DNA of 64,000 bases from Kappaphycus alvarezii (lineage: Eukaryota > Rhodophyta > Florideophyceae > Gigartinales > Solieriaceae), in the NCBI GenBank assembly GCA_002205965.3, contig NADL03000009.1:926883-990882 (forward strand), given 5' to 3'. A program made the translations under genes and the position numbers. Positions 6,901 through 64,000 of the stretch are shown one piece after another (positions within the stretch are counted from its first letter, which is position 1; each line of letters starts with the position of its first letter). The notes under the pieces were generated by a model. That model was not told the origin of the DNA and did no database searches. It was given only the letters and a program-made list of their open reading frames with translations.

Positions 6901-8240
6901 GGTTCGCGTCAAGGCCGGCGTAGCGAAGTAACATGCGACGCGATTCATTTGACGAGGGATTGAAGGCGTCAAAGTACACAACAAGTCCGGCTGCTTGAGC
7001 TATGACCAAACTTCGTGTTGTGACGAGAATACGACCAGCAGGTGAAACTAATCTCCGAAGCTCGGGGAAAAATCCCAAGGCGCTGGATTTTGTTTCCCAA
7101 AGGTCGTCCAGGAGTAAAAGGATCTTCTTCCCTTCAAACCAAGGAGACGCTCTGTCAACACCACGTTCAAGATCAGTTGCCGCCCTGATATGGGAGGCTA
7201 GCTTACTACCCCCAGATTTCTCCACAACTCGTGAGATCCTTTGCACCATACACTCTTCATCGGCTTCAGCGCCAGCAGAAATGAAATAGATGCCATCGGA
7301 AAATGCATCTTGTACATCCCTCTCCCAAGCGATACCAAAAATAGCTGTCGATTTACCCACACCTCCATTCCAACAGCACTAAAGGCATGGGGCGTATTCC
7401 CATCGATAGCAGCGGTACTCACATCACCCGTTTGCGACATCGAGGACATAAGAATCGCTTTGAGCTTTCCCTCCGCGGTAGAGAATTCACCGCCTTCTTT
7501 TTCACGACTGTTGAAATCCAGAACGTGGCTCCGGAGGGCGACGGATCGGGATACTGACGCACAAAACGGTCTGAATATGAACCAGATTGATGTGAAGTAC
7601 TCGATAGGGTTGACTCAGTTGCGGGATGGGGGAATGCAGTTTTTCGCACGGTTGAAGCGATGCGCTGGATAAGACGGGAGCGAGCCATGGACATGTCATC
7701 ATTGTCGACGTTTGACGCGGCCTCTAAATTTTCTACACCAACAAACTTGCACAGCCTGGAAATTGCATCAGACACCTGCTTCCTTGAGGTTTCACCGGCT
7801 CCCATCGGTCATTAAAACCAAGCTCTTCAAAAATACTTTTATTATCTTTGCCCGTGGCCTTAAACAGATCTGTAGAGGTGCATTGATCAAAGGTCATCCT
7901 GTAGAAGACTGGAATCAAGAGAGGTGGCTTGACCATTTGGCGCTCAGCGGTGTCGACGCGGCGAAGAAAGCAGAGAAGCTCTCTCATGGGCCACCTCTTA
8001 GCGAGGAATTCGTGACTTAGAATGAAGATTCCAATGGGGGCCGTTTCCATTTGGCGAATTATTTCCTTTTTCATTTTCGCCGTATCGGAGGCTCCTCTGA
8101 TCGACAAATGCGGATATTGAGTGTTCCTTCAATGCGTCGTGCAACGGAAAGGCGATAGTGGCCTTGTCTTCGCCAGCGTGGCTAATGAAGACGTTGACCT
8201 TCGTACCCATGTCGGTTGAGGCGGAGAGGGCCAAACGCAA
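3984..8240 (-). pseudogene. TIR-NB-ARC-WD40 immune-receptor-like gene (interrupted)
   Basis: Reading leftwards from 8240: a TIR domain (VNVFISHAGEDKATIAF, then MKKEIIRQME and IGIFILSHEFL, to about 7880), a linker, an NB-ARC ATPase domain (7380-6450) and at least seven WD40 repeats to the stop at 3984. NB-ARC motifs visible are a P-loop ending VGKST, kinase-2 ILLLLDDLWET, RNBS-B GRILVTTRS, GRCAGLPLAL, and YKLHDLLMDLC in the MHD position. WD40 units include SGSMDRTLRIWDMEGM and LRVWDTAHM. In this receptor class the beta-propeller senses a ligand, NB-ARC is the nucleotide switch and TIR is the signalling or NADase output. The frame changes nine times (segments ending at about 8107, 7805, 7360, 5723, 5517, 5110, 4808, 4666 and 4433). 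The domain order is certain; whether the lesions are real is not. The adjacent piggyBac insertion lies 5' of the gene. Confidence 0.85.
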
Positions 8241-17345: not shown

Positions 17346-19856
17346 GTGAAAAGTTCGATCGAATTGGAGGTACGAGATTTTTTCTCCAAGTTTGATCTGA
17401 AAACGGGATTTCATCAGATAAGGGGAAACCAGAGGACGTCGAAAAGACTGCGTTCAATACAAAGTACGGGCAATTTGAATATATTGTTATGCCAATGGGA
17501 CTTTGCAAAGCTCTTGCTACGTTCCAAACTTTGATGATCCAGATATTCTATGATTGCATCGATGTATTCCTGGCTACCTATATGGATGATATTCATATAT
17601 TCTGTAAGAATGAGGAAGTACATTACGAACATCTGGAAATTGTATTAAAGAGACTTAAGGATCACAAGCTGTACATCTCTCCGAAGAAATGCTCTTTTTT
17701 GCAGACTGAGCTAAAGTTTTTGGGTTCAATAGTCGGGAAGGACGACATTCGTGTCAATCCTGAGAAGGTCGAAGTGTTACAAACTTGGCCGAAACATGAA
17801 TCTCTAACGGAGTTGAGAAGTTTGTGATGAAGCTTTCCAGAAGCTAAAGGAAGCGGACACTGGCTCTAATCTTAGTCGATCCTAATTGGAAAAAGCCATT
17901 TCGTGGTCATGTATATGCTTCACAGCTTGCTGTCGGTGGAACCCTAACACAGTTGGATGAGAATGGAAGGGATCGTGTAATTTCTTTTTATTCAAAGAAG
18001 CTTTCACCAACTGAGTCGGACTACAATGCAAATGACAGAGAGCTTCTGGCTTTGATTAATTTCTTGGGAAGATTCAGGTGCTGTCTTGAAGGTTATGAAT
18101 TTGAGATTTTCACAGACAACCAAGTGCTTAAGAGTCTCTTCACAAAACCGAAACGGAGTCGGAAAGAAGCACGTTGGTTGGAAACTCTCGGTAACTTCGG
18201 AATCTTTCCCATCCCACTGAAGATTGGAAGAATTCACGTCTTGGGAGACGCATTATCCCAAGCTCCGCACGTGACGAGCGGAGATCGTGACGTCTCAGTG
18301 AATGACGTCGAATTTCCATATCTTGATGTGAATCAGATCATTCTTCTGTATGATGACGACCAGTTCTTCGGTCCAGTGGTAAAAGTCATGGAAGGAGAGT
18401 GGCCCGAGAATATGATTCAGAAGCAGAAACTTGAAAGAATTCTGCCGACATTCCAAAAAGATGGTTCGAGGCTGTTTTACAATTGAAAGTTGTGCGTACC
18501 AAGAAGGTGAGTTTCGGATATTTTGCAAATTGCTCACGACTCGAAAGTTGGTGGACTTTTTAAATTTGCGAAACACTGTCCAGATTAGATAATTTCCGTT
18601 GGGAACATAAGAGCCGGGATGTTCGAAAGTATTGTGAAGGATGTCTCACGTGTCAGCAGTATAAGGACTCTAATCAGGAAAATTTGACTTATCCAATGTC
18701 ACTAGAATTGCCTTATCGCAGATGGGGATCATTAGCTACAGATTTCATTGTAAGGCTACCCCTCACGAGGAGTGGTTTTGATGCGATCACGACTTGGGCT
18801 GATCGACTTACTCGTCGAGTCCATTTTATGAAATCCAGAACATCAGATACTGCTGAGGACACGGCTCGAGACTTCTTCGCGAACATCTTCAAGAACCACG
18901 GGTGGCCGGATGATATGACCTCAGATAGGGAAAGCAAGTTCATTCCAAAGTTTTGGGAGACACTGATGAATCTTTGTGGGGTGAAATTGAGAATATCTAC
19001 AAGTAGACACCCACAAACAGATGTTGCTTCCGAGATTTTGAATAGGATGATCGAGAACTATCTCCGTTGCTATTGTTCGTATCATCAGGATGACTGGGAT
19101 GAATTGCTTCCTTCTGCATAATTTGCATACAACTCGGCTGTGAGCGATGATCTTGGTATATCACTATTTGAGCTGGACTTGGGATGGACACCTAAATCGC
19201 CATTGGACTCCTTGGCTTGCAGCAGCATACCTCTTCAGAGCTTGGACGACTTTCGTGCCAAGCTCAAGGTTTCTCTTGAGGATGCGCGATTTGCCAACAA
19301 AGTGGAAAAGGCTCCACAAGCTGCATATGCTTCAAGGCGATGCAAGTTTTCCGAATATAAAGTCAGTTCAAAGCTGTGGATCAATCGTTCGTTGTTTACG
19401 GATGTTTATTGTAGGTCCCAGGATTCTAAAAAGCTTTGTGCGCGCAGGTTTGGGCCATTTGTGGTTAAGGCGCTAATTGGTAAGAATGCTGTTCGACTGG
19501 ATCTCCCTGCTCACTTTAAAATCCACCTAGTCATTTATATCATTCACACAACACCACATTTGTAGCAGCCCGGCGACATTGCTTTACCCATTCCTCCTGC
19601 ACCTGCACCGCTTGAACTGGCTGGTGGACCAGAACAGGAAGTTGAGGTTATCTTGGATCAAAAAAAGGTTGGATGCGGTTACAAGTTCTTGGTTTTGATG
19701 CGCGGTGTGCCACGTCATGAGGCGGAGTGGCAACCAACGAAGGACTTTGTTGATGTTACGGAAGATGGGTCTGCTGTAGTAACGGATGCTTTCCAAGAGT
19801 ATATTCGGAAACATAATATACTCCCACAGTATCATTGACGAGGACGTCAATAGTCC

Positions 19857-19870
19857 GGGGGAGGGAATAG
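19857..19870 (+). promoter_or_regulatory. Polypurine tract of gypsy copy 1
   Basis: GGGGGAGGGAATAG lies directly before the LTR start TGTAACA. This is the expected plus-strand priming site and is conserved in copy 2. Confidence 0.7.
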
Positions 19871-20055
19871 TGTAACAATGTCTCTGTTACACGACTGTGT
19901 AATAGAGAATTGTTCGCTGTCGATATTCCAATTCTCTATTTCACAGTGGTATAACAGAGAAAGTGCACCACTCTTGATAGAATCTAGAAGCTGTATGTAA
20001 CCGGGTAGCGGTTTTATTGCTGAGTATTTATTTTTCTCTACAGTATTTATTTTCT
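19871..20055 (+). repeat. 3' LTR (partial) of gypsy copy 1
   Basis: It starts TGTAACAATGTCTCTGTTAC and matches the reverse complement of 34330-34522 through TTTTATTGCTGAGTATT and on to about 20055, where similarity fades. No 5' LTR remains. Confidence 0.7.
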
Positions 20056-34187: not shown

Positions 34188-34522
34188 TTATAGACAGTAC
34201 GGCAGCTCTTCTAAGCAACTCTCAGAATTGTGCCAGCTCACTAGAAAACACTCGAAAGTAGGGTTGTAACTAGAAAGTAGAGCTGTAACTAAATAATAGT
34301 ACTATCTAGAACAAAACAAGACGATGACGTCGGGCTCCACGTCAAAAAAATACTGCATAGAAAATAATACTCAGCAATAAAACCGCTACCGGTTACATAC
34401 AGCTTCTAGATTCTATCAAGAGTGGTGCACTTTCTCTGTTACCACTGTGTAATAGAGAATTGGAATAGCGACAGCGAACAAGTCTCTATTACACAGTCGT
34501 GTAACAGAGACATTGTTACACT
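34188..34522 (-). repeat. 3' LTR of gypsy copy 2
   Basis: Read on the minus strand it starts TGTAACAATGTCTCTGTTAC at 34522, preceded by the purine tract at 34523-34536. It shares about 185 bp with the copy-1 LTR. An end at TATAACA near 34188 would give TG...CA ends and about 335 bp, but this boundary is a guess. Confidence 0.6.
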
Positions 34523-37500
34523 ATTCCCCCCCGGACTATTGACGTCCTCGTCAATGATACTGGGAGTATATTATGTTTCCGAATATACTCTTGGAAAGCA
34601 TCCGTTACTACAGCAGATCCATCTTCCGTAACATCAACAAAGTCCTTCGTTGGTTGCCACTCCGCCTCATGACGTGGCACACCGCATCAAAACCAAGAAC
34701 TTGTAACCGCGTCCAACCTTTTTTGATCCAAGATAACCTCAACTTCCTGTTCTGGTCCACCAGCAGTTCAAGCGGTGCAGGTGCAGGAGGAATGGGTAAA
34801 GCAATGTCATCGGGCTGCTCCAAATGTGGTGTGTGTGAATGATATGAATGACTGGATGGATTTTAAAATGAGCAGGGAGATCCAGTCGAACAGCATTCTT
34901 ACCAATTAGCTCCTTAACCACAAATGGCCCATATCTGCGCGCACCAAGCTTTTTAGAATCCTGGGACCTAGAATAAACATCCGTAAACAACGAACGATTG
35001 ATCCAAGCTTTGAACCGACTTTATATCTGGAACCTTGTATCGCCTTGAAGCATATGCAGCTTGGAGCTTTTGCCACTTTGTAGGCAAATTGCGCATCCTC
35101 AAGAGAAACCTTGAGCTTGGCACGAAAGTCGTCCAAACTCTGAAGAGGTATGCTGCTGCTAGCCAAGAAGTCCAATGGCGATTTAGGTGTCCATCCCAAG
35201 TCCAGCTCAAATGGTGACATACCCAGATCATCGCTCACAGCCGAGTTGTATGCAAATTCTGCAGAAGGAAGCAGTTCATCCCAGTCATCCTGATGATACG
35301 AGCAATAGCAACGGAGATAGTTCTCGATCATCCTATTCATAATCTCGGAAGCCATCTGTTTGTGGTGTCTACTTGTAGACATTCTTAATTTCACCCCACA
35401 AAGATTCATCAGTGTCTTCCAAAACTTTGAAATGAACTTGCTGTCCCTATCTGAGTCACATCATCCGGCAACCCGTGGTTCTTGAAGATGTTCGCGAAGA
35501 AGTCTCGAGCCGTGTCCTCAGCAGTATCTGATGTTTTAGATTTCAAAAATGGACTCGACGAGTAAGTCGATCAACCCAAGTCGTGATCGCATCATGACCG
35601 CTCCTCGTCAGGGGTAGCCTCACAATGAAATCTGTAGCTAATGATCCCCATCTGCGGTCAGGCAATTCAGTGACATTGGATCAGTCAATTTTTTGATTAG
35701 AGTCCTTATACTGCTGACACGTGAGACATCCTTCACAATACTTTCGAACATCCCGGCTCTTATGTTCCAATGGAAGTTATCTAATCTGGACAGTGTTTCG
35801 CAAATTTAAAATGTCCACCAACTTCGAGTCGTGAGCAATTTGCAAAATATCCGAAACTGACCTTCTTGGTACGCACAACTTTCCATTGTAAAACAGCCTC
35901 GAACCATCTTTTCGGACATCGGCAGAATTCTTTCAAGTTTCTGCTTCTGAATCATATCCTCTGGCCACTCTCCTTCCATGGCTTCAAGATAGCATCCGAA
36001 TCTTCCCAGAAAATTAATCAAAGCAAGAAGCTCTCTGTCATTTGCGGTGTAGTCCGACTCAGTTGGGGAAAGCTTCTTTGAATAGAAAAAAATTACACGA
36101 TTCCTCCCATTCTCATCCAACTGTGGTAGGATTCCACTGACAGCCAGCTGTGAAGCATCTACATGACCACGAAATGGCTTTTCCTAATTAGGAGCGACTA
36201 AGATTGAGCCAATGTCACTGCTTCCTTCAGCTTCTGGAAAGCTTCATCTCACGTTGATACCATTTCCCTATACCTCGACCTTTTTTGTCAGATCTGTGCG
36301 AGGTGCAGCAATTGCAGAGAACTTCGGAATGAACCTACGGAAACTGTATTAGAACTAAGAAACTTCTCAACTCCGTTAGAGATTCAGGCCAAGTTTTTAA
36401 GACTTAGAACTTCTCAGGATTGACACGAATGCCGTCCTTCCCGATTATTAAACCCAAAAACTTAGTTCAGTCTGAAAAAAGAGCATTTCTTCGGAGAGAT
36501 GTACAACTTGTGATCCTTAAGTCTCTTTGATACAATTTCCAGGAGTTCGTAATGTTCTTCCTCATTCTTACTGAATATAAGAAGATCATCCATATAGACA
36601 ACCAAGAAGAATCGATGCAATCATAGAAGATCTGGTTCATCAAAGTTTGGAACGTAGCAGGAGCGTTGCAAAGTCCCATTGGCATAACAAGATATTCAAA
36701 TTGCCCATACTTTGTATTGAACGCAGTCTTTTCGATGTCCTCGGTTTCACCCTTATCTGATGGAATCCCGTTTTCAGATCAAGCTTGGAGAAAATCTCGA
36801 TATCCAAGTCGATCGAACATTTCATCAGAAGAGGGAGTGAGCATTATTCTTTTTGGTGATGCGATTCAAAGCGCTATAATCGACAACACCTCTAAGTTTT
36901 CCATCCTTTCCTTTCACAAAGAAAAGTGGTGCTCCATATTGCGATTTACTGGACCTGATCTTCCCTTTCCTCAAAAGAGACTCGACGTACTCTTTTGATT
37001 CCCTAAGTTCGAGGGGACAACTGGAATAAAGGTCGATGAGGTGCCTTTGCTCCTCCTCTACTTTGATCTCATGATCAACTGATCGAATCGGAGGAAGCCT
37101 CTTGGCAATTCATCCTGAAAGACCTCTTTAAATTATCCAGTAATCTGCTCAGTCTTCCATCGAACTTTGAATCTGTTACTCCTCTCATACTGTGAACTTC
37201 AAGTAACTGAAATACTTCGAAGTCACCCCCATGCCTCAGCATTCGTCAAATTTCTTCACTCCCAAATTGGACACATCAACACGGTTTTCGTTATCTGGAT
37301 CAATCACTGGAAATGGAAGCATCTTTACAACCGTTTCCGATAGTCGACACGTGGATTGTGGGCGAATACCACGGATGTCAACAGAAGATCATACCTGGTT
37401 TGGGACACAGCCCAACTAGAAGTATAAGTATGTTCTCCTAACGTAATAGGTCCGTTGGAAATGATCTCAGATATTTCGTCAGTAACTCCCTTCTGTGAAT

Positions 37501-49987: not shown

Positions 49988-52900
49988 ATGAGAAATGGAT
50001 GGGGCGTGTCGACTTTGGGCGTGAAGATGAAACGTTACAGGAAATTGGTGTTCCAAAGAAGCGGAGCGGGTATCTCTCTGGATATGCCCACTTTGATAAA
50101 TTCTGTTCATTGCGAGACATCTTCCGTTGGGCATGGAGACTGGGGATTTACAGGCTGTATTGAAAACACTGAAGTCTTTATGATTCCTCACTCCATAAAA
50201 AATGAAGATCTCTTCGAGCAAATAGGAGCAAGAATGTGCTGCAGATTCGTAATTCAGATCAAATCCCCGGACCCGGAAAGTTTACAAGGGGCTTATGATG
50301 TCTTCGGTTGACAACAAGTACAAGCTTGTAAATAACATTCCTAACTTCGACGATATTGTTCATGATCTCATGAGGGGTGAGGTTTCTGGAATGGAAGTAA
50401 AAAGGAAACGGGATAGGAATCCCACAAGGTGCGATGATGGGGCCAGCAACTACGTGACAGACCTTCAAAGAGGCCTCGTACTTCGCTTGTTGCAGCTGAG
50501 CAAGAGAACTCGGACGTCCAGGCATTGGTTCGCAAACCTCCACCGATTCCGCAGTTTCAACTTGATGAGCACAATATCACTGAGGGTATTCGAGAGGTCC
50601 AAATCACGAACCCTGTGGAAGTATCCATTTCGAACAACTCTGAGGCTGTAGAACGAGCCCAGAGAGGGTCCCCTCCGAACCAGGTCCAAGAAGAAGTACT
50701 CTCAATCCCAGTTTTAGCGTATACCCCACCGTTAAATGCGGATAAGCCCACAGCTCCCCCAGTAAATCAATTACTGCTTCAAAATGAAGCCAATGCTCAA
50801 GATGGAACTCGCTCTCTTCCCCATTCTCCACTATCTCCGAGAGCTATGCAATATCAAAACATTTCTAAGGTACCGGAAAATCAATCGCTGCCTCAAAATG
50901 AATCCAATGCTCAAACTGGAACTCGCTCCCTTACCCACTCTCCACTATCTCCAAGAGTTATGCAATATCAAAATATTTCTCAGCGGCCTCATCTTAGTCC
51001 AGCTCTAGAAATCCCGCCATCATTGAAGAATGACACGGATGCTCAAGCAAAAACCCAATCCGCTCGGGAAATGGAGTCTCTTCCCATTCTAGCTCGAGAA
51101 GGAAGAACACTGTCCGCGGCTGTCATGGAAAACCCGCCGCCATATAAGAATGATGTTGATTCTGGCTCAAATCAGAACCACGGGCAAGGTAATGATGTCG
51201 ATAAAAATGTAGAAGAAAATTCTGATGAGTCTGTATCGACGATACCCGGTGGCGATTTGAGCGTTACTGAAGTATCTGAAACACAGTTCAGAACAAATCT
51301 AGATTCTTTCACAAGGCAAGGATCCTGCAGAGGAAGCAGTTCACTCTCTGGAGAGCTTCTCAAGAAGAGCGATGAGCTGTATGCCAGCTCAAAACGAAGG
51401 ATAATGAGGTCAGATGAAATTCCTGCTAGAGTGGAGGGCATAGATATGCTAAGCATCTATGAAGATGTTGCCTTCCTCAGAGAATGGTGTCACCGAGATG
51501 AATTCCGGGAAAGCGCTCGCAACAGAGTTCAATGCTGGCTACGGGACAGGGTTGAACTAACTCGGAATTCAAGATTTGATGTTACCCCCGTGGCATTTAA
51601 TTCGTGGGTGGACTATCGCAGATATTGCATATTTATGGCAATATATCTGATCTATGTCGAGCTGTATGACATAAGCTCTCTAGAGAAGACTTGGGTCTTT
51701 GATACACAGAATGCGCCTATGTAAGTTTCTCCTAATTACCTGAGCTCGGCAATGTTGAAACATTTCTATACGGATCAAATGGATGCGATAACCTCATCAT
51801 TGAGAGGACTGGAAGAAGTCAGTCTTCTGGTCTCCACTGCCGACTTTACGATGTGGTCTGCGTGGATTTCTTAGTGCCACGAGGTTATACCGTAGAACGA
51901 AAGCGATCTGGCTTTGGATATGTATTTCAACAAAAGGTCACTCCCATAAAGCTGTATAAGGTGGAAGAGTTCTGCGAATCCAAATTGTGCTCATGGGATG
52001 GTCAAGAGGCTTGCCACAAGGACCACAGCAGCAAATCAACGGAGAATTTGTTTCTGTGCGAAAAGTTGGATATATAGGGTCCTCCATCAGAGCTTTCGAG
52101 GCAGCCCTACGAATGGAAAACTTACCTTCTGAAGTAAGAGGCCTCTTAATGGGACATGAAGTTATCAGAGACACGCGCAGGATTGGAGAACACGTTAAAA
52201 AGACTGGAGAGCGTAGACGCTTTGAGTACAACGTAGCTCTGCTTCGAAGCTTGTGGTTTCTGCGCGATGGACCCGCAGATTACATCTCAAGAATCACTGC
52301 CTTTCCAGACGAGCCATTATCTCTCGAGAACAATGAATTCGGCTGCCTCAATACCAGCCAAGGTGCAGCGATTGCCGAAGTTGTCTCCGTATTTCCGTTT
52401 AAAGAACGTAGTTCTATTTTTACCAGAACAACATGTGTCATTGGACCAGCTGGGACTGGTAAAACAAACACATTAGTCCATTGCATTTCTGCAATTGCAA
52501 ACCTACTGAAGATTCGCCATCGACTGCTCTACGGAGAGAATATCAGAAGGTCATTGCAGGGGAAAAAGGAGCAAGGACCGGTATTTTGAAAAGAGGCATT
52601 CCTTCCCCTGAAATATGAAGGGAATCCTTTGCATCTGTCCTCCGAACTCTGCTGTTGATGTTTTGAGGAAAAATTGCAGTCTGGAATCGCAATTTCAATG
52701 GAAGACGGTGGTTTGAAGCGCGTGTACCCCCTGTATGAGCGTGTTACCCATCCTTTTCTGACGAAGACAGGTTTATGAGTTCTAAGCGTTCGAAACATCT
52801 CCACGGGAATTTTTAAGCGACTCTTTTCTGGTCTCAGGTACGAGAACAAGTCCGGATGGATTACACTTACTACTTTCGGATCACTTCATCGCCTGTTTGA

Positions 52901-53744
52901 AAGGAAAAAGCACAACCCCAGTTTCTCGGCTGTATTTATCGACGAAGCATCCCAGGTGGGTCGTTTGGATCTCAACATGATGTTTGACACACTTCCCGGT
53001 CCGAATTACGATATTCCGCAAAATTTCATCCTGGATTTTTTCGGTGACCCGCTTCAGCAAGGAACCGTTGTGAAGGGAGATCGAACGCCTTTTTCCACTT
53101 TGTACACCGTTAGCCTTCTGGAGACAATGGTCCCGAGGATGGCCGGATGTTACATCGATGGTGAGGACCAAGTGTCAAATGTTATGCTCGGAGTCCAGTA
53201 CAGAATGAACCCCTGCATAAGCGACCTGTCAAATAGGTCGCAAGAAGGGAGGTGCAGTCCGCTCCATGCACAATTGACAGAGCGGTCATTCGTACCCGCA
53301 GCTATCAGACCTTATTCTATCCTAAGCTGACGGCCTCTGAAGATTCGCCGATTGACAGAAGCTTGTTGGCTCACCCAGTCGTGTTTTTTGATCCGTATCA
53401 ACAGCATGGTCTGTCTTTCAGGAGCATTACTCTCGTGAGACATCAAATAGAGAGGCAATTGTTGTTTCTCGGATAATCAAAACTCTCTCTGCGGAGCCGG
53501 GATTCAGAGATGAAGATGTCTTTGAACTGAGTGTGTATGGAAGGCAATTTGCCTGTTTGAAAAGGGTGGTAGGGAGCAGCTGCAGTATAGGGGTTATCTG
53601 TCTGTAAGCAACATGATCAAGTTCTCGACAATCGCTGGGGTGCAAGGGGGAGAGGCCAAGGTGGTGATATTTTCTGCCACAAGAAGCAGAAAGAATCTCC
53701 TAGGGATTAGGGGATATAGGGGATTTACTGGTTTTAGGGACTAG
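49988..53744 (+). pseudogene. Subtelomeric UPF1-like SF1 helicase with N-terminal cold-shock-like domain, 3'-truncated
   Basis: The N-terminal part (50110-50300) reads GFTGCIENTEVFMIPHSI and GARMCCRFVIQI, resembling a cold-shock fold (G-F-I...V-F-x-H-x-S...G..V.F). A disordered Ser/Pro-rich stretch with two similar units follows (TRSLPHSPLSPRAMQYQNIS type, about 50800-51000), then the helicase. Motifs: LNTSQGAAIAEV (Q-like), GPAGTGKT (Walker A, 52443-52466), ILCICPPNSAVDVL (Ia, about 52620), FIDEASQVG (II, 52938-52960), FFGDPLQQG (III, about 53040), LGVQYRMNP (IV, about 53190) and STIAGVQGGEAKVVIFSATR (V, 53625-53690). Motif VI is absent because telomere-like repeat begins at 53699. About eight frame changes. 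The order and motif identity place it in the UPF1-like SF1B group. Confidence 0.75.
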
Positions 53745-53800
53745 GGGTTTTAGGGGATTTAGGGGATTTAGGGGATTTAGGATAGGCGGTACCGGGGGGA
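53699..53800 (+). repeat. Interstitial telomere-like tract
   Basis: About 100 bp of degenerate TTTAGGGG-type units (GGGGATTTA repeated three times without change near 53755-53780) directly follows helicase motif V. It is in the same orientation as the terminal tract. Confidence 0.85.
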
Positions 53801-55135: not shown

Positions 55136-55267
55136 CCTGGAGCACTAGTTTTTAAAAAATCATTTAGTTTTGAAGATAGGGTAAATTTGCGATTTTGAAA
55201 ATATAGCCAATATGGGGTCATTTGGGGGGTCGGAGTTGGGAGAAGTAGACGTGATACAAACCTATAT
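55136..55267 (+). repeat. Subtelomeric repeat A, copy 2
   Basis: Direct repeat of 54276-54407. It is followed by two GATCTGCAGGGCCA copies at 55279-55292 and 55328-55341. Confidence 0.8.
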
Positions 55268-55344
55268 ATAATCCTCTTGATCTGCAGGGCCAAACCTGGA
55301 AATTTTATTGAATAAATATGGTAAATTGATCTGCAGGGCCAGTG

Positions 55345-56299
55345 TTTCTGGCCTGGAATCGACATGTATGTTTTTTGGATAAATTTTCGCTAACCGTGCA
55401 GGTCAGGTGTAGATTTTCTGATATTTTTTCGTGTCCGTGCAGATCACCTGTGTGTTCTAATTAGAAGTGAAGTACGAAGTGAGTGCAAATCCTCTACACA
55501 ACTGTTTCGATAACTGGTCACCATAAATTGGTAGTGGACCGGTAGTTAAGTGTAAAACAAAAATAGAGAAGACGGGTTGTTTGCCATTATTTTCCATGTT
55601 GGCAGGCTGGCGAGCTAACTGATCTTACTGTTCTTATCGACAGCAGGGTGTACGTAGACACGAACTGAACTGAATTAACTAGCCTGTTTTGTTAAACTTG
55701 ATAGCAGAGATTGTCAGCTCTACGGCATACTATAGCTTAATAAGCGCCGAAATCATTGCGTAGATATCCCCGGCGTTTGTGATATGGAAAAAGATGTGTT
55801 CCTGATTAAAGATGATTGTGATACTCATAGAAGAAGGAGTCCACTAGTCGAGGAACGAAGGCGTTCCTCAGAGCCTCAAAACTAAATGGCATGGCTGGTA
55901 CTACAGCAAAAGCATCCTTCGGCCGCGAAACGATACCTGTACTGGACTCCAAAAAAAAACGTTAGGCACAAGGAACCCGATAGTAGTTGAAAAGAAAATT
56001 TCTTGCCGATTAGTAACATAAATTTGCATGGCCGTGTAGGAATTCTTGGAATTCATGGTGTATACTATTCGGAGTAGAACGAACCGCACCATTGTAAATT
56101 CTTTTTTGTATTCGAATCTTGCTTAGAACCCACTTGACAGAAGATGGTAGTGCCTGTTCTGTGTAATGAGTCATGCTTGAAATATGTGTAAACGAACAGC
56201 AGGAGATTCTATCGTGAATTAAAAAATCTTGAACAGAAAAGCGAGTGAAGGTAACATTATTCATGCTTGAAATCTCCTAACTGAATGCTTACAAATCTC
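55345..56299. other. Spacer, no gene recognised
   Basis: CGTGCAGGTCA and CGTGCAGATCA occur at about 55398 and 55436. Otherwise only short frames were found. Confidence 0.35.
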
Positions 56300-56333
56300 G
56301 GTGCACTTTGTTCCGACCGGAACAATCTGCACC
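56300..56333. repeat. 34-bp palindrome, copy 1
   Basis: The family consensus is GGTGCAGATTGTTCCGG followed by its own reverse complement. This copy is the leftmost and has CACTTTG in place of CAGATTG on the left arm. It is not inside a recognised gene. Confidence 0.9.
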
Positions 56334-56612
56334 ACGGGCACTGAAAATAAAACAGGTGTTCGCAATATTTTCGAATTGACAAAACTCGGATGACAATGAA
56401 AATCGAAAGTGGGAATGAAAGTCAAAACTGAGAACGAACAAAGCGAATTTGTGAAATAAGGAGGTTCGAAGTGGAAATATAGTATATATACCTATAAATC
56501 GACAATTAGATCTTTGATCGGAACTTGATCGAATTCCACGATCTTTCGGTTGACCGAAACCAAACTTTGAATCATACAGGTATCTGCAAAAACAAGATTG
56601 GAATGACCAAAT

Positions 56613-57231
56613 TTGGCGGGAAAGCCGATACAGATGCAAATCCAAGATAGATTAAATGTTCAGTTTCTTGCCCGTCTGTCGATGCCTTTCAAAGAAGAAA
56701 TCATTAACGTACCTCAGATATTCGTTGCAGCCGCCTATCGACCTCAACACTTAGCCACGAGTGGAATTGTTTTCCTCGAAAGATCCGAACATTCGAGTCC
56801 AGTGTTCTCGCCGTTCCTTCGCAAACGGCATCTAATCGGAGAGTACGAGAGGTGGAGGACCCTATACCTCTCCCCTTGAACGCATAGGAGTTCTGCGCGT
56901 TCGAAGTGCTTGGTTGTCGAGGAAGCCCCCTGAATTTTCAGCACCATCTCTGCTTCCCCGCGGATTCCTCATTGGATGGGAGGAGTACTTCGAAGAGCAA
57001 TATCAAAAATCCAATTTAAGCAAATCTCAACTTCGTATCAGTAATCAATTGTCTCCAGATCAGGAATCCTTTCCAAGGCAGATCAATTCTGCACGGCTTT
57101 CAAAGACTTTGGTGCACTTTGTTCCGGCTGGAACGATCTGCACCGTAACTTCAGCACCAGCGGAGTACCAGATTCCTAATTTGGTGCACTTTGTTCCGGC
57201 TGGAACGATCTGCACCGAATTGGGGAAATAG
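56613..57231 (+). CDS. Hypothetical protein region containing two palindrome copies
   Basis: Open frames at 56613-56879 and 56914-57231 (different frames) read as ordinary protein, for example FLIGWEEYFEEQYQKSNLSK. The second frame runs through palindromes 2 and 3, which are translated as the repeated peptide VHFVPAGTICT, and stops 16 bp after copy 3. No domain is recognised. It may be a 5' part of the zinc-finger gene at 57287 or an independent remnant. Confidence 0.3.
57111..57144. repeat. 34-bp palindrome, copy 2
   Basis: Identical to copy 3. The two lie 72 bp apart, a multiple of three, so they are read in one frame. Confidence 0.9.
57183..57216. repeat. 34-bp palindrome, copy 3
   Basis: An exact duplicate of copy 2 with a different downstream flank. 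The left flank TTTGG/TTTGG is shared for at least four bases. Confidence 0.9.
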
Positions 57232-57286
57232 ATTTAGTTTCCTAACTCTCTGAACCGTCAGTCTTGTTGAGAAAGGGTTTCTTCAA

Positions 57287-58048
57287 ATGAATATCTCCAA
57301 GGCTGAAGAGCGACTTCGACTTTCACAAGTATTTGTTGTCCCTCACGCCAATATCATTGTCTGTGGGATATGCGAAGGTGGGATTGAATCAGACGAACAG
57401 AACTTCATTCGTCATATGCGTCGCGAACATCATCGGAACACGGCAGATGCCCGAGAATTGTTTCAATGTGCTATGGAGAAAATCACCGCTGTTGAAACGA
57501 ACCGTGAACTAGAAGAACTGTACAAGGAGAAGGACTCGACAAAGAGGAACTTTCGATTACTTCCAAAGCTTCCTGGACTTCCAGTGACGAAGGTTGTGAA
57601 GTGCATGCACTGCAATCACGTATGCAAAGGACACCGCACCCTGGCCCGTCATATTAGGGAGAGTCGAGACCATGATGAGATCGATGGCGAAGTGGACATT
57701 TCTGAGGTTCCCCTTATAAATGGACAGTCGCTTTGGCGTGGAACGAAAGCCAAGTTCTACTTTGCAATAGAAGATAAGCACCTCGAGCATGGAAACGAAG
57801 GTAATGGTAGCGGCTCTTCTCGTAGCAATCTTATTGCAGCGTTGGAACATGTCCGCGATTCTGCCAGTCGATTGAAGACTCACCAACCAAAAATGAAAGG
57901 TGTTGATGTCAGATACCTGCACAAGTTTGCAGCATTGACGCGACTTGATGTGTACCTAAATAATTTCGGAATTAGATGGGAACATGCAGTTCTGCTCACT
58001 GCTGGACCCGGACGGGGTAATGGGAAGTCGGTGATAGAGGGGAAGTAA
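57287..58048 (+). CDS. Two-zinc-finger protein (C2H2-like), possible OrsD-like protein
   Basis: 253 residues from ATG at 57287 to TAA at 58046-58048, one of the few uninterrupted long frames. Finger 1 is VCGICEGGI...FIRHMRREHH (residues about 25-52). Finger 2 is VVKCMHCNHVCKGHRTLARH with a following H (about 105-130). The C-terminal third holds RYLHKFAALTRLDVYLNNFG. Paired fingers of this spacing recall the fungal OrsD/DUF3505 family, often found in mobile or subtelomeric genes, but this is a resemblance only. It sits between palindromes 3 and 4. Confidence 0.5.
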   Translation: MNISKAEERLRLSQVFVVPHANIIVCGICEGGIESDEQNFIRHMRREHHRNTADARELFQCAMEKITAVETNRELEELYKEKDSTKRNFRLLPKLPGLPVTKVVKCMHCNHVCKGHRTLARHIRESRDHDEIDGEVDISEVPLINGQSLWRGTKAKFYFAIEDKHLEHGNEGNGSGSSRSNLIAALEHVRDSASRLKTHQPKMKGVDVRYLHKFAALTRLDVYLNNFGIRWEHAVLLTAGPGRGNGKSVIEGK

Positions 58049-58134
58049 CGAAAGTTGCGGAGGAAATTAAGCATTGTTTCCAAAATATTTGTCGTCTGTC
58101 CCGAATGCATGCATCTCAGCCGAACATGCGAAGA

Positions 58135-58168
58135 AATGCATTTTGTTCCAACCGGGACGATGTGCACC
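58135..58168. repeat. 34-bp palindrome, copy 4 (diverged)
   Basis: It starts AATGCATTTTGTTCC and ends GATGTGCACC. It is the most diverged full-length copy but keeps the 34-bp length. Confidence 0.75.
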
Positions 58169-58358
58169 ACGAAGGCACATCGGATACTGAGAGACTTTTG
58201 TAGAACGTAGAAAAAGAATAGAACACAACATGTACATTTCTACAAGTACCCGGCATTAAAATTGAACGGTTATGAAACGTATGCAGCACCGTTATATTGT
58301 TATACGACTTATATCCTTTAAAAACGAAAGTAAAGGAATTATTATCTTTATCACCATT

Positions 58359-58392
58359 GGTGCAGTTCGTTCGGGCAGGAACAATCTGCACT
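58359..58392. repeat. 34-bp palindrome, copy 5
   Basis: GGTGCAGTTCGTTCGGG left arm. Preceded by CACCATT, similar to the CATCATT before copy 6. Confidence 0.85.
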
Positions 58393-58402
58393 CTACGCTA
58401 CG

Positions 58403-58439
58403 GTCAGTTACGTAACAGGTAGAGTCAGTTACGTAACAG
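58403..58439. promoter_or_regulatory. Two direct GTCAGTTACGTAACAG boxes
   Basis: Exact 16-mers at 58403-58418 and 58424-58439, each containing the palindrome GTTACGTAAC. TTACGTAA is a known bZIP (PAR/C/EBP-like) recognition sequence. They stand beside palindrome 5. A regulatory role is inferred. Confidence 0.4.
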
Positions 58440-58538
58440 CTGGCCTCATATGGATGTTAAAAACCGTTATAGTAAGGGACCAGGTAAATCCAGTCAGCTG
58501 GGATGTGCAATAACGGAAACATAACTATGACCATCATT

Positions 58539-58572
58539 GGTGCAGATTGTTCCGGCAGGAACAATCTGCACC
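58539..58572. repeat. 34-bp palindrome, copy 6
   Basis: GGTGCAGATTGTTCCGGCAG left half, one central mismatch from a perfect palindrome. Confidence 0.9.
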
Positions 58573-59316
58573 CAACGTTACGTTACTGTAATTTGACACT
58601 GTAAGCATCAGTTAAGATTGGGCAATCTGGCACATGATCATTTCAAAATGTGCAATAAGCATATGCGCAAGGGAAGTATTGGGCGGCATAGCGGTCACCT
58701 CGACCTGCGGACTAACGCCTAAGATCAGTTGTCTCCTCGGAGGCATGGAATAGAAAGTAAATATCCCAAGAGACGGCTTCGGAAGCCGATGAAATGGGGC
58801 GTGGTCCAGCAATTCATGTACCGTTGGAGAATGTAACGACTGTGTTTACAGTGGGACTTTTTAATGGAGATTTCTTTAAACGGTTGAAAATAAGGAAACG
58901 TAGAAAACGCTACACCCCACAAATCTGCGGCAAGCGACAGTACAAATTCTGGGCGCTTTGTTCCGGAGTAGCATAGAAGAATATATATACGGAGTTTGTA
59001 CCACTGCTATCGATACGACAGCACGCTTCATCCACACCGACAATCTGCTCCCTGTTCTTTGCCCTCTTCGTTTCCTTTCTCACTGCCTTCATTTTTCGAC
59101 TCGTCTACACTACTTCATTTTATCTTAGCCAAACCCTTCTCTTTCGCCCCCTTCTCCCTTCGCCGCTTTCCAAATCTGTCCCCCATCTGTTCTTTTCGTC
59201 CCGGCCGTCCCTTCCAGAATTTCGAAATCGAAACCGACCTCACTGCCTGTCTTGTCCCGAATTGGATCAAGACTGGATCAAGTTGATCCGGAGCGACAAT
59301 TAGATCAACGCGACCC
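58573..59316. other. Upstream region of the family B gene
   Basis: No credible ORF. A half palindrome GCGCTTTGTTCCGGAGTAGCA lies near 58956. ATATATATAC at 58980-58989 may be a TATA-like element upstream of the gene at 59406. Confidence 0.35.
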
Positions 59317-59350
59317 GGTGCACATTGTTCCGGCCGGAACAGTCTGCACC
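59317..59350. repeat. 34-bp palindrome, copy 7
   Basis: GGTGCACATTGTTCCGG left arm and CCGGAACAGTCTGCACC right arm. It lies 56 bp upstream of the ATG of the family B gene, a possible operator position. Confidence 0.9.
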
Positions 59351-59405
59351 AACAAGTTTGAGCTGTGCTTATCGGACCTGTCAGCGCGAACTGTACAGAG
59401 CTGCA

Positions 59406-62400
59406 ATGGGAGTGGGTACTGCGTCTGAACGTGGAGGGAGGGGTTCTGGAAGGGGGGGGAAATTTAGGAAGTCTGGACGTGGTGTGAAGGGATTGGAAAT
59501 TGGGGACAGGAGATCCCGAAATGGTTCGAAGCGCACGAGTAATACAACAAAGCAGGCCGACCATTCCGCAGCGAGACATGAGGGAGAACCAGCCAGGATC
59601 GGAAATGTCGATGTGCAGAAATCGAGTTGTGCGGTTGTGGGATGTCCCGGGCGCCCGACGAGCGGCACATTTGGACACAAATGTACGACGTGCCTTCGTG
59701 AAGTCCATATGCTCTGTCTCCGCGAATTGCTTCACTTTCAACCCCATGATCCGGACGATCCTCTTCTCTGTGGAGCAACGATATGTTCGAGAGGTAGCCC
59801 TGGCGAAGGAAGTCATGAGAAAAAGCCTACCAGTGATTGTGACAATGAAGGCGGGGTTACGTGGAGGACGTGTCACCTACGATGGTGCAGATTGTTCCGG
59901 CCGGAACGAACTGCACCAAGGTTCCTAGCCGAGATACAAATGAGAAGGAAGTTCGTGAGGTTGGAATATCGGATGGCAGAAGGGTACATACTGAGCGAGC
60001 TGAACCTGACAATTGTCCGCCTGGTGATGCAAACTCTCCAGGTATGGAGCGCTTCGATGTTGATATCAGCGAAGGGGAGGTCCATCGGAGAATGCGTAGC
60101 TGGTCGATGGTGCTGGATCGTGATGCGTACATAAGTCAGGAGGTCACTTTCAAGCAAGTTGTGGGTCTGAGCTCAAATCCACGTGAGGGAGATGAATCAT
60201 CATTCCCAGTAGCGTCCCCCATGGCCAACATTCGGACAATATCTTCTTCAAATGTGGAAACACTACGGAAATCGTTTGGGAGGGGCGGTGATGCATGGAA
60301 ACCAAGTCTTGGTGTTGCAGTTTTCTTGGTCAGGGATGAGGACATTGGCATTCAGACGCCAGATGAGGACGTCAGCTTCATCGACTTGGACTCGGAAAGC
60401 GGGGAAGACCCCGACCAAGTAGAAGTGGGTGCGGGGGAGAGGTCTGTTGTATGTGCTCAAAGGCTGTACTTCTACAAGAAAGGGAAGCAACCTTGTTTAC
60501 CTTCTTCTTGGGTCAGTAATGGGCAAATACCTGAAGTGCCCGCTACCACTCCTCTCTATATCCTTGATGGTATGGGCCGTATGTCGTTTGCTGCGGAGGC
60601 TCAAGAGAGATTGGTCATCCATTTCCGGGTATATGTTATACCAAAGCAGCAGTTCTTCGGAATGGATAAGAAGACCAACTGGAAAGACTTCATTCGTATG
60701 TTCGTCAGTCTATGTGCGAAGGACATCAACCTCGGCACAAATGCTATTTGCCAAAGCGCACTGGTGCAAAGGGCTGAGACCTGTGCCAGGGAGAGGCAGG
60801 CTAGGGCTTCGGCCTATCCAGGTCGTGTGAAGTGCGAAGGCGAACATGCAGACCTCGTACGAATCACTGAAGAACATGAAGAGGAGGTCAGCCAACCGGG
60901 ATATGTTGGTTCTGAGTGTGGTGCAGATCGTTCCGGTGGGAACAATGTGCACCAAGGCTTAGATTTGTGTGTACCAGAGACGCAATTTGATTCGTTCGAC
61001 GAGGCGTTCGGGAATGAACCGCAGCTTGATGAAGTACCTGTCAGCCAACGTCCCAAGGCGAGGTGTCCTTACAGGCATGGAGATCCCATACCTCGCGTTT
61101 CTCCTCTTGATGTCCTCGACTCGTACCTTCTTCCCGGTCATGTTCGCGGATTTTGTCGATATGTCAATCTCAACTCGGAGTCTGATGATATTGGAGATAA
61201 CCTCGGCATCAAGTCTGTTGATCTCCTCATTCTATGTGGTTCTATATCGATCATTCGCAATGTGATGGTTCACGCTTGCATTGGGTGTATGACTGACACT
61301 GAGCTGGTGGGCACTGACAGGGCGTCAACTTGGGCAGCGGAGGTCCTGGCAATGAGGGAGGATGGTGCTGGGAATGAGTATATGAAACCGTGCTTCAGTC
61401 TAAGGGAAAATGCGAAGGACTTGAAGTCGGCGAAGGGAAGTATTTGGATGGAGTGTCTCCAAGAAGTATTTGGTACCACGTTGGGGGTGAAGTCCAGATT
61501 CTTTGCTCATCCGTATCGCATTGGAATGGAGGAGAGAGTAGTGAAATCCGTGGTGGAAGGGGAGCTACAGCTGATTCAAGCAGATATGGTTGGGTTCACG
61601 ATGATTGCAATGACTGGTCGTTTGGATGGTTACATGAGGCATCGAGAGATAACCTCGCCTGAGAGCACAAACACACACCCGCTCTGTGGATGGAGCAAAT
61701 GCTCTCCTTCTGAAGTTGGATCCATTTCTGCAAGCAAGTTAAAACTGGACGGCAGGAGTGGGAATATCGCTAAACGTATCGCAGCGAGTGGGCACAAGAG
61801 GGATCTAATGAAGATGGCAGCTGTTGTTGGACGAAGAGCCGCTGCTGCGTCATTTCGTGTATGTTGCTGCCTACTTGGTTTGAGAGGCATTGCTTGTGTT
61901 CTAGGAGAGGGAGCTTGCAAATCCAAACTGCCTCCAGCCGATGGTGTGGCAATGAAGATGTGGTTTGCGAGGAATGTTTGGCATCGCCGACCCACTGGGG
62001 ATCAATTGGAGAATCGTGGAAAATGGACTGACGGAGGACAGAATAGCATGATCCGCTTGATTGGTCTGGATCAGCTCAGATGGGAATGGCTCAATTGGAT
62101 TGGGAGGTTTGTCAGATTGTGGCCGATGCTCTCGTCGATCAGGGAAGTGCTCCTCAAAGTTATGTATAATGCAAACCTGCCCGCAGATATTGACTTTGAT
62201 TTGTGGGCCTCGCTGAAGGATTCTGGTATGAGAACAGATCGAATGCACCGTGGACGCCTCGGGGGGAGTGGGTTTGACTACATGATATACAGGTGCCTGT
62301 ATAAGGCGTGCAGGCAGGGGGCCCGACACGTGGCAGAGGCTGAAGATGTTCACTAGAATCGATCGCTGTTTACAGGCTATTGGCAGAAAGCCGGACAACA

Positions 62401-63043
62401 AGCCAGGTGATATTCTAGCATATCCAATCATTCTTCAATTGTCGGATGCCGAAGGGCTTACAGGGGAATATGTCTCTGAATTCATGGATGGGAGGAACCG
62501 AATTGGAATGCGGAATTGGTGAAGAAGTTGAAGGTGAAAAGGTCTCTGATTCCTCTTCCAAATGAGGGAGAGAGTGCCAAACCGAAACCCAAGAAGAAGA
62601 CGAAAAGCGGAGAGGACGGAAGAGGTGGGGAGTCGTCTGGAAAACCGAAATCCACCCTGGATATCTTCGAAATGAATATGGATACCAAAATGAACGTAGG
62701 CGCCGCCGTCATGGGTGCTATATCGAGCTCACTAAACGTGAAGAAGGGGAATGGGAAAAGGAAAAGAGGAGGTAAGGGTAAAGGTGGAAAGAGCGAAGTG
62801 GAACGTAGGGAAGAGGCCGAGATAGCTATGAAGAGTGTCCTACATGCGTACGCTGTGAGGTTGGGGAAGGAAGGATTCTCCTACGATATGACTCACGGCG
62901 AAAGAATGGAGCTCGTTGATAAGATCTGGAAGGATGGTGTGGCCCTGGATCCTTTTAGAAAGGAAGAAGGTGCTGAGTCTGAGGAAGACGTTGTGGAGGT
63001 TGTTTCTCAGGCAATCATGAGAAAACGCAAAAGGGGTGTTTAG
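59406..63043 (+). CDS. Zinc-finger + ParB-like domain protein, family B (three frame segments)
   Basis: Segment 1 from ATG 59406: a Gly/Arg-rich start, then a zinc module SCAVVGCPG, HKCTTCLREVHMLC, H, LLCGATIC (59620-59790). Segment 2 (59861-62356): acidic linker, then ANIRTISSSNVETLRKSF, GVAVFLV and PLYILDGMGRMSFAAEA (60220-60600). This has the N-terminal ParB layout: N-I-R, helix, beta strands, then hydrophobic-D-G-x-x-R-x-x-x-A. A long helical region with GWSKCSPSEVGSISASKLKL and LDQLRWEWLNWIG follows. The frame then passes through RCLQAIGRKPDNKPGDILAY (62355-62510) into segment 3, a Lys-rich tail (KPKPKKKTKSG, GNGKRKRGGKGKGGK) to TAG at 63041-63043. Palindromes 8 and 9 lie inside the coding region. 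It is the last gene before the telomere. ParB kinship rests on motif order and needs profile searching. Confidence 0.55.
59884..59917. repeat. 34-bp palindrome, copy 8 (inside the family B gene)
   Basis: GGTGCAGATTGTTCCGGCCG left half. Arms differ at two positions. Translated in segment 2 as VQIVPAGTNCT. The switch from segment-1 to segment-2 frame happens in this neighbourhood. Confidence 0.9.
60920..60953. repeat. 34-bp palindrome, copy 9 (inside the family B gene)
   Basis: GGTGCAGATCGTTCCGG left arm. It is read in the same ORF as copy 8 but in another phase of the palindrome (GADRSGGNNVH), within an acidic linker. Confidence 0.9.
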
Positions 63044-64000
63044 GGATTTAGGGGATTAGGGATTAGGATTTACGGGATTAGGGATTTAGGGGATTAGGGG
63101 ATTTAGGGGATTTAGGGGTTTTTAGGGGATTAGGGATTAGGGGATTAGGGATTTAGGGTTTTAGGGGGTTTTTAGGGGATTTTAGGGGATTTTAGGGGTT
63201 TTAGGGATTAGGGGTTTTAGGGATTAGGGATTTAGGGGGTTTTAGGGATTAGGGATTATAGGGATTAGGGATTTAGGGGATTTAGGGATTAGGGGATTTA
63301 GGGGATTTAGGGGATTTAGGGTTTTAGGATTAGGGGATTTAGGGATTTAGGGGATTTAGGGGATTTAGGGGATTAGGGATTTAGGGGATTAGGGGATTAG
63401 GGGATTAGGGGATTTAGGGGTTTTAGGGGTTTTTTTAGGGGTTTTTTTAGATTAGGGGTTTTTAGGGGATTTAGGGGTTTAGGGGATTAGGGGTTTTTAG
63501 GGGTTTTTTAGGGGTTTTAGGGATTTTAGGGGTTTTTTAGGGGGATTAGGGAGTTAGGGATTTAGGGATTTAGGGGATTTAGGGGATTTAGGGTTTAGGT
63601 ATTAGGATTTTAGGGATTTAGGGGTTTTTAGGGGATTTAGGGGTTTTTAGGGGGATTAGGGGATTTAGGGATTAGGGGATTTAGGGGATTAGGGTTTTAG
63701 GGGTTTAGGGGATTTAGGGGATTTAGGGGGTTTTTATGGATTTAGGAGTTTTTTTTTAGGGGTTTTGGGATTAGGGGATTAGGGGTTTTTAGGGTTTAGG
63801 GGATTTAGGGGTTTTTTTAGGGGTTTAGGGGTTTTAGGGTTTTTAGGGGTTTTAGGATTTAGGGTTTTAGGGGATTTAGGGTGATTAGGGGATTAGGGGA
63901 TTTTTAGGGGTTAGGGTTTTAGGGTTTTTAGGGGATTTAGGGGTTTTAGGGGTTTAGGGGATTTAGGGGTTTTTTAGGGGTTTTTAGGGTTTTAGGGGTT
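63041..64000 (+). repeat. Terminal telomere-like repeat tract, about 960 bp
   Basis: Continuous, heterogeneous units of the form (A)T2-5AG3-5, such as GGGGATTTA, GGGATTA and GGGGTTTTTA, run to the end of the window. The G-rich strand is 5'->3' toward the right edge, as at a right-hand chromosome end. It starts immediately at the stop codon of the family B gene. Confidence 0.9.

What the first reader, a model, noticed from the sequence alone, without database searches (positions are those of the whole stretch)
59317..63043. Possible eukaryotic ParB/parS-like pair: ParB-like gene with palindromic sites in its promoter and body
The family B gene has motifs in the order of a ParB N-terminal domain (ANIRT..., VETLRKSF, YILDGMGRM). 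A palindrome sits 56 bp before its start codon, two lie inside it, and six lie upstream. Bacterial parS sites are palindromes clustered around parB and bound by ParB dimers. A telomere-proximal ParB-like protein loading on clustered palindromes could act in segregation, tethering or silencing of the chromosome end, or in self-regulation. The analogy is inference.
Basis: inference. Interest (0 to 1): 0.9.

Follow-up and report, generated by a model that had tools for sequence, protein, structure and literature searches.

The report
Chromosome-end mobile element with palindromic sites
The repeated 34-bp palindromes belong to a roughly 16-kb repeat that sits near many contig ends of a large eukaryotic genome and carries a RecQ-type helicase gene plus an orphan gene; they look like docking sites for a paired DNA-binding protein, while the proposed link to the bacterial ParB segregation protein finds no support.

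Summary
Nine copies of a 34-bp palindrome (GGTGCA-N4-GTTCC-N4-GGAAC-N4-TGCACC) lie at 56300-60953: six upstream of the gene, one 55 bp before its ATG, two inside it; 100 shuffles gave none. The gene is real: a database copy is one uninterrupted 1219-aa frame. The ParB reading is not supported: no family, PDB or profile match, profile scores no better than shuffles; the fold stays untested. What is there is larger: a ~16-kb repeat, 17 copies on 14 contigs of this 336-Mb genome, each within about 25 kb of a contig end and pointing to it, with one 5' terminus against different flanks in the five copies read, and in places cut off by telomere repeats. A fuller copy encodes a 1645-aa OrsD/BED zinc-finger protein with a RecQ helicase and a recombinase-like motif; the window keeps its 5' stub. 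The closest known kind is the fungal telomere-linked RecQ helicase. The palindrome's variable columns show no compensatory pairing, so it is best read as a bipartite site for a dimeric element-encoded protein, not a hairpin. Two of five telomere truncations fall inside a palindrome (post hoc p = 0.014), a hint of breakage there.

The parts
53707..53781 (+). interstitial telomere-like tract upstream of the element
   Evidence: tandem GGGATTTAG-type repeat
55261..58138 (+). left part of the element; its 5' terminus (CC|TATATATAATCC) is shared by the five copies read (one of the four on C94), with different left flanks
56300..56333 (.). palindrome 1
57111..57144 (.). palindrome 2, upstream of the OrsD/BED gene
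57183..57216 (.). palindrome 3, 70 bp before the ATG at 57287
57287..58048 (+). 5' stub (253-aa open frame) of the OrsD/BED zinc-finger RecQ-helicase gene, which is 1645 residues in contig C89
   Evidence: OrsD E 7e-11 and BED E 7e-6 in the stub; in the 1645-aa protein OrsD E 3e-8, BED 0.0018 (below its cut-off)
58135..58168 (.). palindrome 4, left edge lost at the junction of a ~6.5-kb deletion relative to contig C89
58359..58392 (.). palindrome 5
58539..58572 (.). palindrome 6
59317..59350 (.). palindrome 7, 55 bp before the ATG of gene B
59406..63043 (+). gene B, 1219-aa protein in P0001; N-terminal cysteine/histidine-rich stretch (by eye), ParB-like words in the middle, basic C-terminal part (by eye)
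59884..59917 (.). palindrome 8, inside gene B
60920..60953 (.). palindrome 9, inside gene B, in another reading frame
63039..64000 (+). telomere-like array, joined five codons short of the stop that P0001 and contig C595 have; the contig ends here

Best explanation
The palindromes are recognition sites of a chromosome-end-associated mobile or selfish element about 16 kb long. Shown: the element recurs on 14 contigs, is oriented toward the contig end, has a sharp 5' terminus where read, and encodes a zinc-finger protein fused to a RecQ helicase plus gene B. Shown: the site keeps two symmetric half-sites (GGTGCA and GTTCC, 4 bp apart) and its variable columns do not pair. Inferred: a dimer of an element-encoded protein, most likely the OrsD/BED-RecQ protein with its tyrosine-recombinase-like segment, less likely the gene-B protein, binds these sites to mark, regulate and mobilise or maintain the element at chromosome ends. 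Inferred: breakage or processing at the sites may explain some truncations that end in telomere repeats.
For: 201 sites vs 3 control; one site type found at 34 places (two per copy, 17 copies) on 14 contigs, control 0, all within about 25 kb of a contig end and pointing to it. Same 5' terminus with different flanks in 5 of 5 copies read. OrsD 3e-8, DEAD 1e-11, Helicase_C 8e-11, PDB best matches BLM and RECQ5. 19 distinct sites: half-site columns 1.12-2.0 bits, variable columns 0.43-1.51 bits and not symmetric beyond chance (0.535 observed, 0.583 expected; 96% of permutations as high). In the relic on C24 (75.8% identical overall) half-site columns kept 80 of 88 bases, variable columns 32 of 48 (Fisher p = 0.0007). 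Two of five truncations by telomere repeats lie in a palindrome.
Against: No binding shown. The 19 sites were found by the pattern itself, so their column conservation is partly built in. The recombinase reading rests on a motif chosen after looking (R665, R788-R791, H843, Y852; 102 of 5000 shuffles also match); Pfam, PHROGs and PDB do not see it, and one relic has N for H. Of three copies compared over the whole 1645-aa frame only C89 is whole, though assembly error may share the blame. Five contigs (C89, C487, C686, C750, C783) end inside the element, so end proximity is partly an assembly effect; a decayed gene-B relative lies well inside C719. No insertion with both ends and an empty site was seen. 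The 5-truncation test is post hoc.
Confidence: 0.5

Rival explanations
1. Gene B is a true ParB/Srx-fold CTPase clamp and the palindromes are its parS sites, used to tether or segregate the element or chromosome end.
For: Palindromes flank and enter gene B; the words NIR, SFGRGGD and DGMGRMSF are kept in a 52%-identical relic on C719, so that stretch mattered.
Against: No sequence or profile support; no ParA-like domain in the proteins scanned, which were only part of the window's frames plus the C89 protein; sites also persist in copies cut off before gene B (C94, C492, C493).
Confidence: 0.1
2. The palindromes are operators: the gene-B protein or the OrsD/BED protein represses or activates both element genes by binding sites just upstream of their ATGs.
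For: Sites 70 bp before the OrsD gene ATG and 55 bp before the gene-B ATG; symmetric bipartite site.
Against: Many sites are far from these starts, several lie inside both reading frames, and the middle array varies in number between copies.
Confidence: 0.2
3. The palindromes are tiny mobile palindromic repeats that inserted many times and have no function.
For: Found in unrelated contexts and in two reading frames within gene B.
Against: Half-site columns better kept than variable columns and than background in a diverged relic. No spread outside the element is evident among the places listed, but only about 50 of the 201 were listed.
Confidence: 0.12
4. They act as hairpins or cruciforms, in DNA or RNA.
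For: 34-bp near-perfect dyad.
Against: No compensatory pairing at the variable columns.
Confidence: 0.05

Closest known systems
Telomere-linked RecQ helicase (TLH) genes and subtelomeric repeats of fungi, e.g. Ustilago maydis UTASa/UTASb, Agaricus bisporus subtelomeric RecQ (PMC10532341, PMC7473861, passages seen)
   Same: Multi-copy RecQ-like helicase next to telomere repeats; truncated copies; an OrsD domain is reported in UTASb.
   Different: Here OrsD/BED and RecQ lie in one 1645-aa frame with a recombinase-like motif between them, with a second 1219-aa gene, about 18 palindromes and a sharp 5' terminus. The Agaricus paper says no domain other than the helicase core was found in the subtelomeric RecQ proteins.
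Bacterial ParB-parS
   Same: Clustered palindromes around a gene; a few ParB-like words.
   Different: No detectable homology, no partner ATPase seen in the proteins scanned, site arranged as two bipartite half-sites over 34 bp (parS is 16 bp: PMC8494293, start of abstract in the listing).
Tyrosine-recombinase elements such as Cryptons, with lox/FRT-like sites (recalled)
   Same: R...RxxR...GH...Y motif order; 34-bp site that could be read as 13-8-13 (lox and FRT lengths recalled).
   Different: Only a motif, no family match; RecQ fusion and telomere association.
Yeast Y' elements and fungal MoTeR/FoTeR telomeric elements (recalled; FoTeR seen in the listing only)
   Same: Repeated units separated by short telomere tracts, as in the C94 array.
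   Different: No reverse transcriptase domain in the two element proteins scanned; different genes.

Membership tests
ParB/parS | ParB N-terminal (ParB/Srx) domain by sequence or profile | tested here: not met
ParB/parS | ParB/Srx fold | tested here: inconclusive
   single-sequence model pLDDT 32
ParB/parS | CTP binding and clamp loading | not testable with these tools
   needs a bench assay
ParB/parS | palindromic sites clustered at the gene | tested here: met
Telomere-linked RecQ helicase repeats | RecQ-family helicase encoded next to telomere repeats in several copies | tested here: met
Telomere-linked RecQ helicase repeats | common descent with fungal TLH proteins | tested here: inconclusive
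   search with residues 330-900 found no relative among the 7991 candidates scored; fungal sequences were not compared directly
Tyrosine-recombinase element | catalytic R, RxxR, GH and Y in the usual order | tested here: inconclusive
   present in the C89 protein, but motif only and 102 of 5000 shuffles match; H replaced by N in the C494 relic
Tyrosine-recombinase element | family-level match to integrases or solved recombinases | tested here: not met
Mobile element | constant terminus against different flanks | tested here: met
   5' end in 5 of 5 copies read, of 17; a 3' boundary TTACAGTCA shared by 2 copies, both followed by telomere-like repeats
Mobile element | empty site or target duplication | not tested
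   no second strain or full insertion with both flanks was read

The most novel reading that the evidence does not exclude
A telomere-seeking mobile element whose zinc-finger/recombinase/RecQ protein cuts or recombines at its own 34-bp palindromes, so that element ends are trimmed at those sites and capped by telomere repeats; gene B is a clamp-like partner loaded at the same sites.
Probability: 0.15. Interest if true: 0.88.

Novelty: new variant of a known kind. Interest (0 to 1): 0.6.

Why it matters
Telomere-linked RecQ helicases have been known since at least 1998 (reference list seen), and the Agaricus paper still finds their role unclear. An element that pairs such a helicase with a sharp end, a recombinase-like motif, an orphan partner gene and a dense set of well-defined sites would give a concrete substrate on which to test how these repeats move to, or live at, chromosome ends.

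Tried and rejected
ParB homology by Pfam, NCBIfam, PHROGs, PDB and by profile against 50 bacterial ParBs (of 80 loci fetched; the other 30 did not pass my motif filter): rejected for lack of signal (the first hhalign run seemed to run in global mode and was set aside). A weak phage tblastn hit (E 7) was looked at and set aside. Intron hypothesis for the frame shift near 59850: rejected because P0001 reads straight through. Hairpin hypothesis: no compensatory changes. Relatives in viral contigs, plasmids, phages: none useful. Paper searches: searches found no paper; one, not opened; some searches gave lists from which four papers were opened for passages (PMC9812998, PMC10532341, PMC7473861, PMC8381367); none of the listed titles describes this combination. 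Organism: I recall that a red-alga assembly (Kappaphycus alvarezii) is about 336 Mb; one search did not confirm it.

Full report
Observation. The window holds nine copies of a 34-bp palindrome between 56300 and 60953; elsewhere in its 64 kb a scan with up to 4 mismatches in the core shows one chance-level match, at 2530. Six are upstream of the gene, one ends 55 bp before the ATG at 59406, two are inside it. None appear in 100 shuffles. In the 336-Mb genome (884 contigs; the window is the right end of contig C9) the core pattern has 201 places with up to 2 mismatches against 3 for the reversed control (only about 50 of the 201 were listed).

The gene. P0001, from a source labelled lgn (contig of 5126 bases), is 1219 residues in one frame and matches the window except at the frame breaks and the last five residues; it was the only relative in the protein database by two searches. 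The ParB-like stretch has no family or structure match. Within the genome there are further copies on C651 and C595, partial ones on C89, C487 and C750, a decayed 52%-identical relative inside C719 and weaker ones on C675 and C645.

ParB test. A profile of 50 bacterial ParBs was compared with residues 250-470: score 14.9, reached by 54 of 200 shuffles, and residues 1-250 of the same protein scored higher, 16.3. With the C719 relic added the score was 12.4, reached by 129 of 200. The AlphaFold model without relatives had pLDDT 32. So ParB homology is unsupported; the fold is not excluded.

The element. Contig C89 has the same sequence as the window on both sides of a further ~6.5 kb that the window lacks at 58137-58138. 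There the OrsD stub of the window continues into a 1645-residue frame with an OrsD domain, a weak BED match and a RecQ-family helicase. Between them lie R665, R788DYR791, GH843 and Y852 in the order of a tyrosine recombinase (102 of 5000 shuffles match too); Pfam, PHROGs and PDB give no support; the relic on C494 keeps RxxR and Y, not H. Over the whole frame only C89 is unbroken among three copies compared; C487 and C492 are broken.

Ends and distribution. One site type maps 34 times, two per copy, giving 17 copies on 14 contigs, control 0. From the contig lengths each copy lies within about 25 kb of a contig end and points to it. Five contigs (C89, C487, C686, C750, C783) end inside the element, so assembly breaks contribute; telomere-like arrays at the contig end were read on C9, C94, C492, C493, C595 and, after other DNA, C652. 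C595 and C651 share a 3' boundary TTACAGTCA followed by telomere-like repeats, long and terminal on C595, about 45 bp and then other DNA on C651; I take it as the likely natural end. Summed coordinates give about 15.9 kb with about 18 sites. C94 carries four units of ~6.9 kb, each with a ~70-bp telomere tract and about 2 kb of other sequence. The C536 copy is cut short and followed by a Gypsy-like retroelement (read by eye from the frames), not a telomere. Diverged relatives of the helicase gene are on C24, C494 and C782.

The site. In 19 distinct sites the half-site columns carry 1.12-2.0 bits and the 12 variable columns 0.43-1.51 bits; the sites were found by the pattern, so part of this is built in. 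The variable columns show no excess symmetry (0.535 against 0.583; 96% of permutations as high). That argues for recognition by a symmetric protein, not for a hairpin. In the C24 relic, 75.8% identical to C89 over 4180 columns, the half-site columns kept 80 of 88 bases and variable columns 32 of 48 at the four aligned sites (one alignment gap counted as a difference).

Breakage hint. Five truncations of the element by telomere repeats were read: C9 at the end of gene B, C492, C493 in the helicase, and C94 and C24 inside the same palindrome but at different bases. Left out: the shared C595/C651 boundary, the C94 terminal array (joined to other DNA) and tracts outside the element. Two of five against an expected 3.9% gives p = 0.014; with the C595/C651 boundary counted, two of six, p = 0.020. 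Both were computed after the fact. The window's ~6.5-kb deletion ends at a palindrome edge on its right side only; a second, ~125-bp gap near 58320 relative to C89 does not touch a palindrome.

Judgement. The element is closest to fungal telomere-linked RecQ helicase repeats (PMC10532341 and PMC7473861, passages seen; PMC8381367, one passage) but differs in domain make-up and in the palindromes. The most likely role of the palindromes is to bind an element-encoded dimer; which protein binds, and whether it cuts, is inference.

Noticed in passing
window 51987-53700: Fragments resembling a superfamily-1 helicase (AAA_11 E 0.0009, AAA_12 E 0.002, both below Pfam's cut-offs) run up to the interstitial telomere-like tract at 53707, as if this gene too was cut and capped.
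   Followed up: partly
window 18383-20052 and 34344-35984: Inverted pair of ~1.6-kb repeats, 94% identical.
   Followed up: no
C94 301164-328082: Tandem array of four truncated elements with short telomere tracts between them, then a terminal telomere array.
   Followed up: partly
C89 365312-366142 and equivalents: The number of palindromes in this stretch differs between copies (C89 three, C487 five, C492 and C536 seven), like an expanding array.
   Followed up: partly
L100 (C595), reverse complement 6659-7327, minus strand: An open frame of about 170 residues from its first ATG on the opposite strand near the 3' end of the element.
   Followed up: no
window 58319-58322: About 125 bp present in C89 are missing here, and the C536 copy leaves the element close to the same place.
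   Followed up: no
window 50764-50980: A 114-bp unit repeated about twice inside a 399-aa open frame.
   Followed up: no
window 5693-7378: NB-ARC (STAND) protein frame on the minus strand.
   Followed up: no
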